Part shown: piece after piece, positions 4,670 to 18,636 of the stretch
Layout: the number at the start of each line of letters is the position of its first letter
Numbering within the stretch: position 1 is the stretch's first letter
Origin: a virus
Virus record (IMG/VR): IMGVR_UViG_3300042379_000363
Coordinates: 62,001 to 126,000 of that record
Length of the DNA: 64,000 bases
Direction: 5' to 3' (one strand)
Position numbers and translations under genes: made by a program
The notes under the pieces: generated by a model
Seen by the model: only the letters and a program-made list of their open reading frames with translations
Database searches by the model: none
What the model was told of the DNA's origin: nothing

Positions 4670-5488
4670 TTAAAACATTTTAAATTTTGATTCTACTTTA
4701 TATTGGTATTTTTTATTCCCCAATTCTTGAATCATCTTTTTACCCGTCTCAATTCCATTATAAACATCCTCGATAACCACATACTCATTTCTTGTGTGAT
4801 AGTCGTAATAACCTATCGCAAAATTGATACAGGCGAAGTCAAAAGAGTTCTTTAATGCGTAAACATCGGTATAAGGGTTTGAGAAGTATTCTTGTCGTCC
4901 ATTGAAACTCTCATTTAATACACCGTTACAAGTTTCAAAAAACTCACTGTCTCTATCAAACAATCTTGTTCCCATACAAATTTCTGTAACCATTGTATTT
5001 CCCGGAGCATCAAACTGAATACCATAACCAACATTCATAAAGAAGTTTGGGTCGGCTTTCTTGGACCCGTGACATCCGGTTTCTTCAGATACAAAGAACG
5101 CGGCTTTCAGATTTGGTAATTCTTTTAATAGTTCTAAACACGCATAAACACCACATTTGTCATCACCACCAATTCCGGTTGGGTTACCCAAATCGTTATA
5201 AGCTTTTAAAGCCGGTTTGATTTCATACTGACTATTTTGTAACATTTCCTCACGAATATTAATCGTGTCAATATTATGAACTGTATCAGTGTGAGCAATT
5301 ACACAGGGGAAGTAATCCACAAACTCATCTGTTTGTTTTATTGCATAAATGTTGTTATGTTCATCCACATTGAAGGGAATTCCATTTTCTTCTAACCAAT
5401 TGGTTATAAATTCCACCATACGGTCTTCTTGATATGTTACTGTCGGAACCGACAAAACGTCTTTTAATAATTGATAATTTCTTTCCAT
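4670..5488 (-). CDS. M20-family zinc aminopeptidase (peptidase T-like)
   Basis: 272 aa with the M20 metal-site signature in order: AHTDTVH (H66, D68), GIGGDDK (about 106-111), SEETG (E135/E136), a following D (QFDAPG) and a late H (YDYHTRNEY). It lacks an obvious dimerisation insert, so it is shorter than cellular PepT (about 410 aa). It would cleave short peptides in the cytoplasm, perhaps recycling Clp products. A promoter-like site (5493-5521) precedes it. Confidence 0.85.
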   Translation of the reverse strand: MERNYQLLKDVLSVPTVTYQEDRMVEFITNWLEENGIPFNVDEHNNIYAIKQTDEFVDYFPCVIAHTDTVHNIDTINIREEMLQNSQYEIKPALKAYNDLGNPTGIGGDDKCGVYACLELLKELPNLKAAFFVSEETGCHGSKKADPNFFMNVGYGIQFDAPGNTMVTEICMGTRLFDRDSEFFETCNGVLNESFNGRQEYFSNPYTDVYALKNSFDFACINFAIGYYDYHTRNEYVVIEDVYNGIETGKKMIQELGNKKYQYKVESKFKMF

Positions 5489-6975: not shown

Positions 6976-7372
6976 GGGAGTGACACGGAATTGACTATTC
7001 GTAATAGTTATTCGGGGCACGTAGTGAGATGTTCTCTATCACTTAAATCTATGGGTACAACAATTTAGACGGAAACGTTTTAAACAAAATGGCTCTAGTA
7101 GGTCTTGTACGTCAAGACGAGCTTGTGAACGTAGCGTAAGCACACTCACATTGGGGTCGGTGGACATATAACCTAGCAACAGAAGTCCCTACAAAGGTGT
7201 GGTACCTATCCGAAAAGGTACAAGTGGAGGATTAGTTCTCAGTAAACCGAACCACTCTAAAAATAAGGGAATTGTGAAATTTTGGATTGTTAGCTTAAAC
7301 AATATCCTAAACGTGTAGTCCTTAATAGGTAATACAAGTAACACCGGAGTTCGAGTCTCCGCACTTCCACCA
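6976..7372 (+). ncRNA. ssrA: tmRNA (SsrA) with unusual tag
   Basis: The 5' GGGAGTG pairs with 3' CACTTCC, followed by encoded ACCA. The T arm GGAG-TTCGAGT-CTCC is at the 3' end. About 397 nt in all. The tag frame is 7101-7139 if resumption follows TAGTA, giving GLVRQDELVNVA then TAA; an in-frame earlier resume at GCT (7092) would add ALV. Most bacterial tags end in LAA; this one ends in NVA. It rescues stalled ribosomes with SmpB, encoded 0.9 kb away. Own promoter and terminator. Confidence 0.92.
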
Positions 7373-8230: not shown

Positions 8231-8668
8231 TTATTTTAAATCTCTCTTCATATCTCTCTCAATGTCCCGGGATTTAATACTGTCTCGTTTATCGTGGAGT
8301 TTCTTCCCTTTGGCAAGAGCAATCTCCATCTTAACCAATCCGGTATCATTTAGGAAAACACGATAAGGAATGATGGTTGTCCCGTTAATTAACTCACGCT
8401 CCAACTTATTAAGTTCTTTTCGTTTAAGTAATAGTTTTCTATCCTTAACAGTCTCGTGGAAGGACCCGTAACCGTAATCAGAGATATTCATCCCCTTTAT
8501 AAACAACTCCCCATCATTAAAATAACAATACCCTTCAGATATGGACACCTTTCCCTGACGGATGGACTTAACCTCAGAACCAACTAGTTTGATTCCCACA
8601 ATTAGGGTTTCTAAGAATGAATACTCAAATTTGGCTTTCTTATTGACGATGTTAATTGATTTTTTCAT
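8231..8668 (-). CDS. smpB: SmpB, tmRNA-binding protein
   Basis: 145 aa. Start chosen at MKKSINIVNKKAKFEY, because the longer frame would begin inside the upstream terminator. SmpB hallmarks are GIKLVGSEVKSIRQGKVSI (OB-fold core), YGYGSFHETVKDRKLLLKR, GLVKMEIALAKGKKLHDKR and a basic C-terminal tail. It delivers tmRNA to stalled ribosomes. Phage-borne smpB beside its own tmRNA indicates a complete private trans-translation module. Confidence 0.95.
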   Translation of the reverse strand: MKKSINIVNKKAKFEYSFLETLIVGIKLVGSEVKSIRQGKVSISEGYCYFNDGELFIKGMNISDYGYGSFHETVKDRKLLLKRKELNKLERELINGTTIIPYRVFLNDTGLVKMEIALAKGKKLHDKRDSIKSRDIERDMKRDLK

Positions 8669-8673
8669 ACGAC

Positions 8674-8703
8674 AAAGATAATATAAAAATTGATATAAAC
8701 AAA
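8674..8703 (-). promoter_or_regulatory. promoter of smpB
   Basis: TTG (8701-8703), 19-base spacer and TATCTTTG (8674-8681) on the minus strand, directly before the SmpB start. Confidence 0.75.
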
Positions 8704-8704
8704 A

Positions 8705-8734
8705 AAAGGTGTCACATTTCTGTAACACCTTTTG
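8705..8734 (-). terminator. terminator of the long ncRNA
   Basis: Minus strand AAAAGGTGT-TACAGAAATGTG-ACACCTTTTTTT ends the non-coding transcript entering from 9615; the smpB promoter follows at once. Confidence 0.8.
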
Positions 8735-9615
8735 GCTAATTAGGTTGAGATTAAACCTATTATTGAGAATCTTTAAAAGGATTATTAGTTCCCTTTATAT
8801 CCACATCCTTTTGGGATGTAATCCTCAGTGACGATTGGTTAGACCAATCACTCCTCGAGTCGTAAATTACTCTCTTATTACTCCACTCTCCTCAATCTTG
8901 CGAACTGATTAATCCTTGCGGGATTAGAGGTTTTTGGTAAGAATACACATCAACTTGCGGTCTCTGTGTGCTATGGACAGCCCATAACTAAGTAGTCACC
9001 TTGTCATCTACGACTGACAGACGCTTTTGCTTTTTTCTGTTTAGTTTTTCACCATATTGAAAATAGTTAACGTGTTGTGGATGTGTCGAAGAAGGGGTCT
9101 GTCGTAAGCTCCGTTATCTTTTGGACAACAAAATACTAACCTCCTCCGTGTAATGTCCCCATTACGAAATTTCAAGTGTAGTTCATATCAACATCTTGGT
9201 AGATGTTTGATAGGGATAAAATCGACACCACTCGTTCTTTATCTTACCTTTCGGTTTTAACCCAACTCTAATTTTGGGACCCGCAATCACATATTTGGAA
9301 ATATGTTTCTTACTTGGTTCCTATGGGTTATTCTTATTGGTGTTCCCACCTCAACCGGACAATCCACATTGCCAAGTTAGTATTCCATTTCCCTACGAAG
9401 TTATCCTCGGTACTACAGGACTACTAATATCCCACTTGCTTACTCGAGTTCAGTTTCCCAAACCACAAAATCACTAACACTAATGATTTCATTTTATCCC
9501 CGTTTCCGGGATTATTTAAAGATGATAAGCCACCTATTATCGTTTTTTACTCCACCAAAGTGGGTAAAGGATAATCTAAAATTTCTAAGAACGTCTTGAG
9601 GTTTTCCTCATTTGT
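8735..9615 (-). ncRNA. large structured non-coding RNA (about 0.9 kb)
   Basis: No plausible gene in about 880 bases, but a perfect promoter (9620-9649) and terminator (8705-8734) bound it on the minus strand. Many hairpins are visible. Read on the minus strand, several close with GNRA loops: GCAA (8911-8927), GGGA (about 9151-9166) and GAAA (about 9495-9512). Others are an 11-bp stem at 9187-9215, ACATCC/GGATGT near 8800-8818, and GATTGG/CCAATC near 8834-8850. Size, structure density and tRNA proximity recall the GOLLD and ROOL large RNAs of phages; I cannot confirm membership. Confidence 0.7.
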
Positions 9616-9784: not shown

Positions 9785-9902
9785 TCTGTGATAAGACCTT
9801 AAGATTTACTCATTCGTAGGTCACCCATTCTATTCTACCTAAAACTCGCACTCCCGTCGGGATAGTCTGCTGTAATAGGTCTATCTGCTATCTTATCACA
9901 GA
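9785..9902. repeat. 12-bp perfect inverted repeat enclosing structured spacer
   Basis: TCTGTGATAAGA at 9785-9796 is exactly complementary to TCTTATCACAGA at 9891-9902. Inside lie smaller stems (TAGGT/ACCTA, TCCCG/CGGGA). It lies just 3' of the permuted tRNA at 9910 in transcription order and may be a processed RNA domain. Confidence 0.55.
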
Positions 9903-9909
9903 ATAAAAT

Positions 9910-9998
9910 ATGTGTGTGTATACTCTACCACTGCAGTTAAACCTTGGTCATTACGATTACGGTTGTTGGAATCGAACCAACGACACTACACCACACAT
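9910..9998 (-). tRNA. circularly permuted tRNA-like gene P1
   Basis: Minus-strand order is: anticodon-stem 3' strand GTGTA, 5-nt variable loop GTGTC, T arm GTTGG-TTCGATT-CCAAC, acceptor 3' strand AACCGTA, a 10-12 nt loop, acceptor 5' strand CAAGGTT, TA, D arm (ACT-GCAGTGGTAG-AGT), A, anticodon-stem 5' strand TACAC. All spacings equal those of a normal tRNA once the halves are rejoined. The outer ends extend the stem by ATGTGT/ACACAT with one bulged G. The acceptor pairs at 5 of 7 positions. The anticodon is not certain; position suggests GTG. Confidence 0.6.
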
Positions 9999-10002
9999 TT
10001 TG

Positions 10003-10093
10003 TGACACCGACAGGGTTCGAACCTGTGGCACAGAGACTTTCGGGACTCCTGCTCTACCAAGGAAGATGAATCTCCCACTGAGCTACAATGTC
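10003..10093 (-). tRNA. tRNA with 17-nt D-loop insertion
   Basis: Acceptor GACATTG/CGGTGTC (two G-U pairs), TA, D stem GCTC/GAGC and a perfect T arm ACAGG-TTCGAAC-CCTGT. The D loop reads AGT, then 17 extra bases that fold 5-7-5 (GGGAG-ATTCATC-TTCCT), then TGGTA. The normal anticodon position reads CGA (Ser) but its stem pairs badly. Isotype unresolved. Confidence 0.55.
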
Positions 10094-10249
10094 ATATAAT
10101 CCTAACTTGTTATGGCGGTTACATTTTTCAGTAACACGTTAGATGCGAAGGGCTACCTCCCGAACTGGTTACGGGTCATACACAATCTCATTTTCCTCAC
10201 ATACCATAACGACCGATTGAACCTAAGTCGTTAATTAGAATATATTTTA
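10094..10249 (-). other. structured spacer between tRNA-like genes
   Basis: No gene seen. An inverted repeat GTTATGG/CCATAAC (about 10108-10114 and 10203-10209) encloses hairpins GTTAC/GTAAC and CCCG/CGGG. AACGAC/GTCGTT stems around a TTCAATC loop near 10210-10232, resembling an imperfect T arm. Confidence 0.4.
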
Positions 10250-10322
10250 GTGGACGTATGCTCTACCATCTGAGCTACGGGGTTAAGACCGGAGGGATTT
10301 GAATCCTCGACACAACGTCCAC
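10250..10322 (-). tRNA. circularly permuted tRNA-like gene P2
   Basis: Minus-strand order is: ACGTT (anticodon stem 3'), variable GTGTC, T arm GAGGA-TTCAAAT-CCCTC, acceptor 3' CGGTCTT, then directly acceptor 5' AACCCCG, TA, textbook D arm GCTC-AGATGGTA-GAGC, A, TACGT (anticodon stem 5'). The flanks GTGGACGT and ACGTCCAC are perfectly complementary (8 bp) and close the molecule. The acceptor has two mismatches and no spacer, so a conventional mature 3' end is not evident. Functional tRNA or tRNA mimic cannot be decided. Confidence 0.6.
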
Positions 10323-10351
10323 CTATTTTTTCAAGAAACTTATTTTTATCT

Positions 10352-10423
10352 TTATTCTGAATCATTAATTTTAATTACGAAAAACACAAAGACTATAGCT
10401 AAACCTATAAAACACCCTACCAT
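10352..10423 (-). CDS. 23-aa membrane peptide
   Basis: Short frame MVGCFIGLAIVFVFFVIK..., almost entirely one transmembrane helix. It lies directly behind the promoter at 10444-10474 and is first in the leftward tRNA unit. Coding status rests on promoter position and similarity in style to other tiny membrane peptides nearby. Confidence 0.45.
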   Translation of the reverse strand: MVGCFIGLAIVFVFFVIKINDSE

Positions 10424-10443
10424 AATTTATTTATTTTCTTCTA

Positions 10444-10474
10444 CAAAGATAATACTTTTATTTTAATCTGTCAA
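10444..10474 (-). promoter_or_regulatory. promoter of first tRNA group
   Basis: TTG (10472-10474), 20-base spacer and TATCTTTG (10444-10451) on the minus strand; reads into the 23-aa peptide and tRNA-like genes at 10322-9910. Confidence 0.75.
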
Positions 10475-10496
10475 ACTTTTTTTTACTTTTTTTTAT

Positions 10497-11282: not shown

Positions 11283-11385
11283 TAGTCAGGACAGGACTCG
11301 AACCTGTAACTTCTTTATCATACAGAGTGCCATTAGCTGTTATCTCAACCTGGAGGGTGATGCGTTACCACTACGCCACCTGACT
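11283..11385 (-). tRNA. tRNA with expanded anticodon/variable region
   Basis: Perfect acceptor AGTCAGG/CCTGACT, D arm GCG-TAGTGGTAA-CGC and T arm ACAGG-TTCGAGT-CCTGT. Between D and T stems are 54 bases instead of about 23; TCACC-CTCCA-GGTTGA lies at the anticodon place (CCA or TCC). Same acceptor and T arm as tRNAs at 22370 and 30726. Isotype unresolved; an intron or long variable arm is possible. Confidence 0.5.
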
Positions 11386-13965: not shown

Positions 13966-15003
13966 TTACAATTTTTTGAATTCCGGTCTCATTAGATTCC
14001 ATATGATTTCAGAGTAGTCTTTTTTATCAAACATCCTAAATAGAATCCCTGACATATGTTTTGGTTGGGTTAACACCCACTCAGCAAACTCTTTTCTATC
14101 TTCTATAGGTTCTTTATCATTGTATTTACCATACATCATACCATCAAATTTTTTACCAGCATCCTCAGATATTTGAAAATAACCGTATTTTAAATGTTGG
14201 ACATAAGATTTAATTTTGTTATAGAATTCATCAGGGACATCTTTTAATATTTCCATAACATCTTCACCATTTTTTAAATACTCCCAAACACCGGTTGTGG
14301 TAACGTTAGTCATTATCTTATGAAGACGAAGATACTCAACACCTTTTACTTTGACTCTATCCCCATTAGAGAACTTCACAACAAACCCTTCTTGGTTATC
14401 TTTTACCATAGATTTAAGTTCTTTAAAATCTTTGATACCATCGTATTTTTTAACTACATCAAATCCCCATTGAGACCACATTTCCGCATCTATCTCTTTA
14501 CCATTTTTATCAAAGGTTCCCAATAGGACCAATTTTTCATCATCTCCATAATCCAAAACAATTCTGTTCTCCGGATAGATGATTTCAAAACAGAAAGTCA
14601 GATGTCTGAACATTATGTCGGTATTGTATTTTCTTAAGATTTCTCTCGCTTTGATTGCTTGGTCAGAGGTGAATGAACCACGAGTGGCAACCACCCATTG
14701 TCCTCGGTACCAAAATACAATTCCCAATGAACCGTCCATTTTTTCAAATACTTCAAAGTTTTCAGTTGGTTCAAATTTTCCTTCTTCTATATTGAAGAAC
14801 TTTTGGAATGGAGTTGCGACTATATCTCCGGTGTCGTCGGTAACTAAACCTCTACACATCAAAGTCACCTCATCCCACAGGTTCTCGTACTGAACTTTTT
14901 CAGTATAATTCCATATGGTTAATGGAAGTGATGGATGTACTTGTTTGTAAAGTAATCCGTCTTCGTAATATTTGTTTAGTTTTTCTAACATAATTTTATT
15001 CAA
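13966..15003 (-). CDS. RNA ligase, T4 Rnl1-like
   Basis: 345 aa. Nucleotidyltransferase motifs appear in order: motif I EKMDGSLG with adenylated Lys88, motif III-like CFEIIYPENRIV (about 145-156), motif IV EGFVVKF (about 211-217) and motif V RVKVKGVEYLRLH (about 222-234). It joins 3'-OH and 5'-phosphate RNA ends using ATP; T4 Rnl1 repairs anticodon-cleaved tRNA. It sits between two tRNA-rich regions and upstream kinase/phosphatase genes, fitting tRNA repair or splicing of the permuted tRNAs. Confidence 0.85.
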   Translation of the reverse strand: MNKIMLEKLNKYYEDGLLYKQVHPSLPLTIWNYTEKVQYENLWDEVTLMCRGLVTDDTGDIVATPFQKFFNIEEGKFEPTENFEVFEKMDGSLGIVFWYRGQWVVATRGSFTSDQAIKAREILRKYNTDIMFRHLTFCFEIIYPENRIVLDYGDDEKLVLLGTFDKNGKEIDAEMWSQWGFDVVKKYDGIKDFKELKSMVKDNQEGFVVKFSNGDRVKVKGVEYLRLHKIMTNVTTTGVWEYLKNGEDVMEILKDVPDEFYNKIKSYVQHLKYGYFQISEDAGKKFDGMMYGKYNDKEPIEDRKEFAEWVLTQPKHMSGILFRMFDKKDYSEIIWNLMRPEFKKL

Positions 15004-16002: not shown

Positions 16003-16032
16003 CAAAGATATGGAATTAAAGTTTTACCTCAA
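16003..16032 (-). promoter_or_regulatory. promoter within repair operon
   Basis: TTG (16030-16032), 19-base spacer, TATCTTTG (16003-16010) on the minus strand, overlapping the 3' end of the kinase gene; it drives 15982 to 13966, including the ligase. Confidence 0.7.
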
Positions 16033-16411
16033 AACGATTTTTCATTATTTCCAATTTATCTTCCGGAACTCCGTGTTCATTAACTCCTCCGTGTCTATTT
16101 TCTACAATAAGTGAATGAACTCTATATCCGTATTTTTTAGCCAAGTCATAATAAGGTAACATTTCCCACTCTTGGGTGAATGTATTTGATACCACAACTT
16201 TATGTTCGTATTTCATAAGAAACTCAACCTCTTCTTGACACCAAGCGTGAGCATCTCTCAATGATGTAACATCAAACTTATAGTTACCATCCCCATCGAC
16301 AAAATACATATCCGCCTCTTTATGGCAATAATCTTTATCACCAACTAACATTTTTGCCAATGTTGATTTACCACTCCCGGGTAATCCCCTCAATAAAAAT
16401 AACTCTTTCAT
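16016..16411 (-). CDS. P-loop polynucleotide-kinase-like protein, 131 aa
   Basis: Walker A GLPGSGKST at residues 9-17 after MKELFLLR, and a DMYF segment matching the PNK/AAA_33 kinase fold. Ends after a putative lid region (RHGGVNEHGVPEDKL). Size equals a kinase domain alone, without the phosphatase half of T4 Pnk. Likely 5'-OH RNA kinase given the ligase downstream; other small-molecule kinase roles are possible. Confidence 0.75.
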   Translation of the reverse strand: MKELFLLRGLPGSGKSTLAKMLVGDKDYCHKEADMYFVDGDGNYKFDVTSLRDAHAWCQEEVEFLMKYEHKVVVSNTFTQEWEMLPYYDLAKKYGYRVHSLIVENRHGGVNEHGVPEDKLEIMKNRFEVKL

Positions 16412-18082: not shown

Positions 18083-18541
18083 TTAGTCAATTGTATCGTG
18101 AGGAATTTTAACTCTAACACAAGTTTGAGCTTGACCCTCGTTCATATAAAAGTTGTTCAAATAACCCATAATGTTCGCACTCCCGATTGGGTTTGCAGAA
18201 TGAACATATACAATTGGAAAAACAAACCTATCTCTTTTTCTTTCACTTCTACTCATATTGAATCTACCTTCATTTGTGTTGTGAAATAATGCAACTAAAA
18301 ACTTAGCAGCATCGTATCCGGTTTTTTCGTCAATATTGTTATAATCCAAAGTATAATTTGGTGAAACGTTATTGAAATATTCTTTCATTGCCGTATCACC
18401 CAAATCGTGGTCCAAGGAAATTATATCAATATTTCCTAAACCAATCTCACTAACTTTACTAACAAATTCATCGTAATTTCTCACCACTATCCAATTATCT
18501 CCGGTTGGGGTTCTTACGTCATCTAAATAAATTCTTTTCAT
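18083..18541 (-). CDS. receiver-like protein (cREC type)
   Basis: Start at MKRIYLDDVRTP. LDDVRTP and ISLDHDLGD (about 43-51) match a compact receiver-like domain that has been linked to cyclic-phosphate processing in RNA-repair contexts (family name from memory). Last of the leftward repair-type genes 18541-13966. It may process cleaved RNA ends; this is inference. Confidence 0.6.
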   Translation of the reverse strand: MKRIYLDDVRTPTGDNWIVVRNYDEFVSKVSEIGLGNIDIISLDHDLGDTAMKEYFNNVSPNYTLDYNNIDEKTGYDAAKFLVALFHNTNEGRFNMSRSERKRDRFVFPIVYVHSANPIGSANIMGYLNNFYMNEGQAQTCVRVKIPHDTID

Positions 18542-18636
18542 AATCATATAATTTGACACAAAGATAATCATTTTTTTTAATATAAAAAATGTTTATTTAA
18601 AAAAAGTAAATATTTATATAATAAAAACAAATAAAA

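What the first reader, a model, noticed from the sequence alone, without database searches (positions are those of the whole stretch)
10250..10322. Circularly permuted tRNA gene (P2) in a probable phage
A textbook D arm (GCTC-AGATGGTA-GAGC preceded by TA) lies downstream of a T arm with normal variable-loop spacing. The outer ends GTGGACGT/ACGTCCAC pair perfectly, extending the anticodon stem. Rejoining the ends at the anticodon restores normal tRNA spacing. Permuted tRNA genes are known from some algae and archaea; I know of none established in phages. Weak points are two acceptor mismatches and no spacer between acceptor strands.
Basis: partly seen in the sequence, partly recalled or inferred. 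Interest (0 to 1): 0.9.

Follow-up and report, generated by a model that had tools for sequence, protein, structure and literature searches.

The report
Phage tRNA mimic, bacterial Y-RNA type
The "circularly permuted tRNA gene" is a real, conserved RNA structure, but it cannot be made into a tRNA: it is a tRNA look-alike built like the bacterial Y RNA YrlA, and in a family of large phages it sits at the head of a noncoding unit next to the giant GOLLD RNA and a ribosome-rescue gene.

Summary
Observation confirmed. On the minus strand, 10322-10250 reads T arm, short hairpin, D arm, closed by a perfect 8-9 bp stem. The element occurs in 31 viral records (13 distinct sequences). Three closing-stem pairs differ on both sides between two subtypes, and no closing-stem pair is broken.

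Interpretation corrected. It is not a permuted tRNA gene. In relatives the "acceptor" shrinks to a 12-nt capped hairpin (CGGATTTATCCG). There is no anticodon loop or U33, and the T-loop closing pair is always mismatched. The topology is that of the tRNA-like module of bacterial Y RNAs: Rfam YrlA matches end to end (41.5 bits, below the 69-bit cut-off). A model built only from phage Y RNAs found in Rsr-encoding records ranks this element first in the window (52.8 bits, E 1e-14). A second such element (9910-9999) ranks second.

It is not a standard YrlA either. Its flanks lack the lower-stem motif seen in 20/21 Y RNAs from Rsr-encoding records, and Rsr was found in 0/31 records. Instead it lies upstream of GOLLD RNA (28/31 records; the 3 misses are short contigs), with smpB downstream of GOLLD in most (26/30).

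Best reading: a GOLLD/SmpB-linked, Rsr-less, Y-RNA-like tRNA mimic; partner unknown.

The parts
10250..10322 (-). P2: Y-RNA-like tRNA mimic (T arm 10308-10292, capped hairpin 10291-10278, D arm 10275-10260, closing stem 10322-10315 with 10257-10250)
10444..10475 (-). Bacteroidota-type promoter TTTGACA-N-TATCTTTG upstream of P2
   Evidence: sequence; conserved 77-85 nt upstream of the T arm in relatives, 167 nt in the window and L123
10102..10226 (-). conserved block between P2 and T2, shared with a 735-kb phage
   Evidence: 75% identity; also in L007
10003..10093 (-). T2: tRNA-like element with a hairpin in the D loop and a 6-nt loop NYGAAA in the anticodon arm; the Pro(TGG) call is spurious
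9910..9999 (-). P1: second permuted tRNA mimic; absent from several relatives
9785..9902 (-). domain closed by TCTGTGATAAG/CTTATCACAGA between P1 and GOLLD
   Evidence: sequence; present in L008 and the L015 group, absent in L022, L063
9620..9650 (-). second Bacteroidota-type promoter, directly before the GOLLD 5' region
   Evidence: sequence
8742..9148 (-). GOLLD RNA, conserved 3' region (RF02032, 326 bits)
8231..8728 (-). smpB (PF01668, 5e-48), downstream of GOLLD, same strand
6976..7372 (+). tmRNA (RF00023, 68 bits)

Best explanation
P2 (10250-10322, minus strand) encodes a small structured RNA module that mimics the body of a tRNA. A T arm and a D arm carry the nucleotides that join the tRNA elbow (U8/A14, G15/C48, G18G19 with U55C56, U54/A58). 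A short capped hairpin stands where the acceptor stem would be, and a long helix replaces the anticodon arm. This is the layout of the tRNA-like module of bacterial Y RNA YrlA. It is not a tRNA precursor: there is nothing to mature into an acceptor end or an anticodon (shown by sequence). The module is transcribed from its own Bacteroidota-type promoter (inferred), at the head of a cassette of tRNA mimics (P2, T2, optional P1) upstream of GOLLD RNA and smpB. Most likely it works as a protein-docking tRNA decoy or tether, offering a tRNA elbow to a tRNA-binding protein (inferred). Because the Rsr-linked lower-stem motif and the Rsr gene are missing, the partner is probably not Ro60/Rsr. Host PNPase (the ligand of the YrlA module) or the phage's own SmpB are the best candidates (inferred, weak). 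The confidence given is for the identification as a Y-RNA-like tRNA mimic; the choice of partner is far less certain.
For: Rfam YrlA matches 10231-10335 over the whole model, 41.5 bits, E 7e-8, with the same helix order; the next best match in the record is 14 bits. Model R1, built from 20 phage Y RNAs from Rsr-encoding records and no P2, scores P2 52.8 bits (rank 1) and P1 37.3 (rank 2); other hits in the window are 22.5 or less. Across 81 sources (GOLLD-bearing and related loci plus the window), P2-type elements (52.8-55.7) beat every other hit, including tandem-tRNA false positives (at most 45.2). 31 records, 13 distinct sequences; 3 closing-stem pairs changed on both sides, 100% of closing-stem cells paired; sliding the partner strand of the whole structure drops pairing from 98% to 33-59%. 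The acceptor-like hairpin is 3-4 bp with a 4-8 nt loop in every subtype. Rsr/TROVE 0/31 P2 records vs 21/31 of the other permuted-topology records. GOLLD in 16/19 vs 1/31. smpB in 26/30 P2 records vs 3/20 GOLLD records without P2. Motif GTTACT-like 20/21 vs 0/31.
Against: The YrlA score is below Rfam's gathering cut-off (69 bits), and most of it comes from T and D arm consensus, so P2 could be an independent derivative of a tRNA rather than a descendant of YrlA. The P2 records are related phages, so the association counts are not independent events and the p values overstate them. The closing-stem changes separate two subtypes and may be few events. The T-loop closing mismatch (A/U53.C61) could weaken the elbow. 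The GTTACT-like motif was defined on the Rsr-linked set itself. No expression or binding data.
Confidence: 0.85

Rival explanations
1. A genuine circularly permuted tRNA gene whose transcript is circularised at the anticodon and cut at the acceptor to give a tRNA.
For: T and D arms in permuted order, compensated outer stem; an RNA ligase of T4 Rnl1 type is encoded 4 kb away (13966-15003).
Against: The acceptor strands cannot make 7 bp in any subtype, and subtypes C and D leave only 12 nt for both strands. No discriminator, no anticodon, no U33; the stem runs through the anticodon-loop position. The fold forms a closed hairpin.
Confidence: 0.03
2. A canonical YrlA Y RNA that works with an Rsr (Ro60) protein and PNPase in an RNA-degrading machine, using host Rsr.
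For: Same module topology; YrlA CM and R1 matches.
Against: No TROVE gene in any of 31 records, including contigs of 308-322 kb. The lower-stem motif found in 20/21 Y RNAs of Rsr-encoding records is missing, and the CUA/AUGU internal loop of the YrlA consensus is deleted.
Confidence: 0.08
3. A remnant of two adjacent tRNA genes after deletion, with no function.
For: The phage has a large tRNA array; the acceptor strands mismatch.
Against: Conserved in 31 records with a compensated 9-14 bp stem and a conserved promoter at a near-constant distance; two different copies, P2 and P1; chance of the descriptor is low.
Confidence: 0.03
4. P2, T2 and P1 are parts of one long GOLLD transcript (variable 5'/linker domain) and serve as structural or cargo-docking arms of the GOLLD cage. 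This concerns context and can be true together with the tRNA-mimic reading.
For: Same strand, fixed order, 400-870 nt upstream of the GOLLD motif in the loci read; tRNAs sometimes sit in the GOLLD linker region (PMC12286853).
Against: A separate promoter-like sequence stands directly before GOLLD, and in subtype D the closing stem is followed by T7-8, like an intrinsic terminator, which suggests an independent small RNA.
Confidence: 0.25

Closest known systems
YrlA, bacterial Y RNA (Rfam RF02553)
   Same: Order T arm - capped acceptor-like hairpin - D arm, closed by a basal stem in place of the anticodon arm; elbow nucleotides kept; known in bacteria and mycobacteriophages
   Different: Score below gathering; no Rsr-linked lower stem or internal loop; no Rsr gene in the phage; linked to GOLLD and smpB; 53-61 mismatch
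Circularly permuted tRNA genes of algae and Thermofilum (type II, junction 37/38; PMC3978253)
   Same: 3' half precedes 5' half
   Different: Those keep a full acceptor stem, anticodon, U33, an intervening sequence and a BHB motif; P2 lacks the acceptor, anticodon and U33 (a BHB motif was not looked for with a dedicated tool)
tmRNA tRNA-like domain
   Same: tRNA elbow with the anticodon arm replaced by a long helix; the phage encodes tmRNA and SmpB nearby
   Different: tmRNA has a real acceptor stem with CCA; P2 has a closed hairpin and a full D arm
GOLLD RNA (RF02032) with tRNAs in its linker (PMC12286853)
   Same: tRNA-like units beside or upstream of the conserved 3' region
   Different: Here the units are non-decoding mimics, two of them permuted

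Membership tests
Circularly permuted tRNA gene | 7-bp acceptor stem formed by the two strands | tested here: not met
   3-4 bp with a 4-8 nt loop in all subtypes; 12 nt in total in subtypes C and D
Circularly permuted tRNA gene | Anticodon loop of 7 nt with U33 after rejoining | tested here: not met
   Ends pair as a 9-14 bp helix; the joined loop would be 8 nt with C33
Circularly permuted tRNA gene | Permuted order of T and D arms | tested here: met
Circularly permuted tRNA gene | Circular intermediate and mature tRNA | not testable with these tools
   needs RNA
YrlA (RF02553) | tRNA-like module: T arm, capped acceptor-like hairpin, D arm | tested here: met
YrlA (RF02553) | Reaches Rfam gathering score 69 | tested here: not met
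   41.5 bits
YrlA (RF02553) | Lower stem shared by Y RNAs of Rsr-encoding records (GTTACT-like motif, internal loop) | tested here: not met
   0/31 vs 20/21; internal loop deleted
YrlA (RF02553) | Rsr (TROVE) gene in the same genome | tested here: not met
   0/31 records, some of them fragments; a host Rsr cannot be excluded
YrlA (RF02553) | Binding of Rsr or PNPase | not testable with these tools
   needs biochemistry
GOLLD RNA | GOLLD 3' domain on the same strand downstream of P2 | tested here: met
GOLLD RNA | Same transcript as GOLLD | tested here: inconclusive
   promoter-like sequences before both P2 and GOLLD

The most novel reading that the evidence does not exclude
A separate class of phage tRNA-mimic RNA that does not use Rsr but works with the phage's own ribosome-rescue set (SmpB, tmRNA) and GOLLD RNA, for example as an SmpB-binding or ribosome-directed tether.
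Probability: 0.25. Interest if true: 0.8.

Novelty: new variant of a known kind. Interest (0 to 1): 0.6.

Why it matters
The functions of GOLLD and of most bacterial Y RNAs are open questions. A conserved phage locus that puts a cassette of non-decoding tRNA mimics, GOLLD, smpB and usually tmRNA together gives a testable lead on what GOLLD-linked RNAs bind during infection. It also suggests that a tRNA-like module of the Y RNA kind can exist without its classic partner Rsr.

Tried and rejected
Permuted tRNA gene: rejected on the relatives' hairpins and the missing anticodon. Chance: rejected by shuffles and conservation. Tandem tRNA read-through: ARAGORN finds no tRNA overlapping any P2-type site, while true tandem tRNAs in the same scan show one or two. 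Canonical YrlA with Rsr: no TROVE, no lower-stem motif. P2 in cellular genomes: an exact-pattern scan of the 84,980-species collection gave 0 hits. P2 in named phages: no GenBank phage record covers 80% of P2; the listed hits are mostly tRNA stretches. tRNA-Pro at 10002-10093: the TGG lies in the D loop, and the anticodon arm has a 6-nt loop. The primary YrlA papers (Chen 2014, Wang 2018, Sim 2018) are not held, so YrlA facts come from reviews and citing papers.

Full report
What is there. The window lies in a 175,757-bp virus record. Reading the minus strand from 10322 to 10250 gives a T arm, a short hairpin and a D arm, closed by GTGGACGT/ACGTCCAC. This four-way junction is the minimum-free-energy fold (z -3.1 for 10245-10330). 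A strict descriptor finds one site in the window; with an outer stem of at least 8 bp it finds none in 60 shuffled windows. No ORF of 60 aa or more covers the site.

Relatives. A conserved GOLLD motif pulled 76 viral loci, and two patterns for a T arm followed closely by a D arm pulled 49 and 52 (a few overlap). Together they hold two kinds of non-tandem permuted modules. One is the P2 family: 31 records, 13 distinct sequences. The other is a set of records whose modules look like ordinary bacterial Y RNAs, with a 4-6 bp hairpin often capped by UUCG or GNRA-like loops and a short upper stem; 31 of these were tested for Rsr and GOLLD. In the P2 family the closing stem pairs in every sequence, and three of its nine pairs differ on both sides between subtypes (G-U/U-A, A-U/G-C, C-G/U-A). 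Sliding the partner strands of the whole structure drops pairing from 98% to 33-59%. The changes separate two subtypes and may reflect few events.

Why it is not a tRNA gene. In subtypes C and D only 12 nt (CGGATTCATCCG, CGGATTTATCCG) separate the T arm from the D arm: a 4-bp hairpin with a 4-nt loop. In the other subtypes it is 3-4 bp with a 6-8 nt loop. No 7-bp acceptor and no discriminator base can exist. The outer helix continues for 9-14 bp through the place of the anticodon loop. Joined ends would give an 8-nt self-complementary loop without U33. Known permuted tRNA genes keep the acceptor, the anticodon, U33 and a BHB junction (PMC3978253).

What it resembles. In E-value mode Rfam gives YrlA, the bacterial Y RNA, over the full model: 41.5 bits, E 7e-8, with identical helix order. 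Because that is below the gathering score of 69 and weak YrlA matches ring in many control genomes, I built model R1 from 20 phage Y RNAs found in records that also encode Rsr, with no P2 sequence in it. In the window it ranks P2 first (52.8 bits, E 1e-14) and a second permuted element, P1 (9910-9999), second (37.3 bits); the other hits are at most 22.5 bits. Over 81 sources (GOLLD-bearing and related loci plus the window) P2-type elements score 52.8-55.7, above the best tandem-tRNA false positive of 45.2. YrlA is described as a tRNA-like module resembling the D, T and acceptor arms on a basal stem that holds Rsr, with the module binding PNPase (PMC8394870). Y RNAs have been reported in mycobacteriophages (PMC12282133), and Rsr-like proteins in a Listeria and a Vibrio phage.

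How it differs from YrlA. TROVE (Rsr) is absent from all 31 P2 records, including contigs of 308-322 kb, but present in 21 of the 31 Y-RNA-type records tested. A GTTACT-like lower-stem motif occurs in 20 of 21 Y RNAs of Rsr-encoding records and in 0 of 31 P2 elements; the motif was defined on the Rsr-linked set, so the contrast is descriptive. The internal loop of the YrlA consensus is deleted in P2. The T-loop closing pair, G-C in all R1 sequences, is A.C or U.C in all P2 sequences. P2 therefore shares the module but should not be filed as a YrlA member.

The locus. Upstream of P2 a Bacteroidota-type promoter (TTTGA-N-TANCTTTG; the promoter type is named from general knowledge) sits 77-85 nt before the T arm; in the window and one near-identical record an insert pushes it to 167 nt. 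The order on the strand is promoter, P2, an optional conserved block, T2, optional P1, an optional closed domain, a second promoter, GOLLD, then smpB. T2 (10003-10093) was called tRNA-Pro, but the TGG is in the D loop. It carries a hairpin in the D loop and a 6-nt anticodon-arm loop NYGAAA, with compensatory changes in the acceptor, anticodon and T stems, so it too looks like a non-decoding tRNA-like element. P1 is cleanly missing in L008, L031 and the L015 group. GOLLD was found in 16 of 19 P2 records picked up only by the T/D pattern scans; the three misses are contigs of about 15 kb or less. The other 12 P2 records, including the window, carry GOLLD or its motif. smpB was found in 26 of 30 P2 records against 3 of 20 GOLLD records without P2; it lies close downstream of GOLLD in the window and in several records (for example 92 nt by family matches in G051 and G057). 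tmRNA is also frequent nearby, but is common in GOLLD phages without P2 too. These counts come from related phages and are not independent.

Mechanism. Shown: sequence, fold support, compensation, conservation, neighbours. Inferred: it is transcribed, it forms a tRNA elbow, and it docks a tRNA-binding protein. PNPase is suggested by analogy with YrlA, SmpB by the neighbourhood. Whether P2 ends as its own small RNA (subtype D has T7-8 right after the stem) or runs into GOLLD is open. An RNA ligase, a P-loop kinase and a cyclic-phosphate-processing receiver domain lie 4-8 kb away, which recalls that Y RNAs of some bacteria sit in RNA-repair operons (PMC7790460); this is only a parallel.

Novelty. 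Phage Y RNAs are known, and tRNAs in the GOLLD linker are known (PMC12286853). I found no paper in the held library that links Y-RNA-like mimics to GOLLD; the one paper holding both terms mentions them separately. The family had no exact-pattern match in the 84,980-species collection, and no named phage record covers most of P2. I rate it a new variant of a known kind.

Noticed in passing
window 8231-8728 (-) and 6976-7372 (+): Phage-encoded SmpB directly downstream of GOLLD and a tmRNA on the opposite strand; the smpB link is conserved in P2 phages (26/30).
   Followed up: partly
window 10003-10093 (-): tRNA-like element with a D-loop hairpin and a covarying anticodon-arm stem with a 6-nt loop NYGAAA; probably a non-decoding tRNA mimic miscalled tRNA-Pro.
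   Followed up: partly
L002 3774-3893, L003 3401-3488: GOLLD loci of 635-642 kb phages also carry odd tRNA-like elements; in L002 a tRNA-Glu-like element has two hairpins inserted in the D loop and, like the tRNA at 4837, a 6-nt anticodon loop.
   Followed up: no
L137, L142, L168, L182 and others: Many uncultured phages carry ordinary Y RNAs in records that also encode Rsr (21 of 31 tested).
   Followed up: partly
L121, L124, L149, L172: Permuted tRNA-like modules without Rsr that share a different lower stem (AGGATAC-like / GTATCCTGTT-like); possibly a further class.
   Followed up: no
window 10102-10226 (-), L004 4001-4116, L007 8806-8832: A block conserved at 75% between this phage and a 735-kb phage, without an Rfam match; possibly an unnamed RNA family.
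   Followed up: no
window 13966-15003, 16016-16411, 18083-18571 (-): RNA-repair-like genes: T4 Rnl1-type RNA ligase, P-loop kinase, cyclic-phosphate-processing receiver domain.
   Followed up: partly
window ~10356-10427 (-): An 83-nt insert between promoter and P2, only in this phage and a near-identical one, holds a 23-codon ORF with a hydrophobic stretch.
   Followed up: no
window 11283-11385 (-): Rfam tRNA of 103 nt that ARAGORN does not call; long insert between anticodon and T arm; a similar long one in L008 (4828-4941).
   Followed up: no
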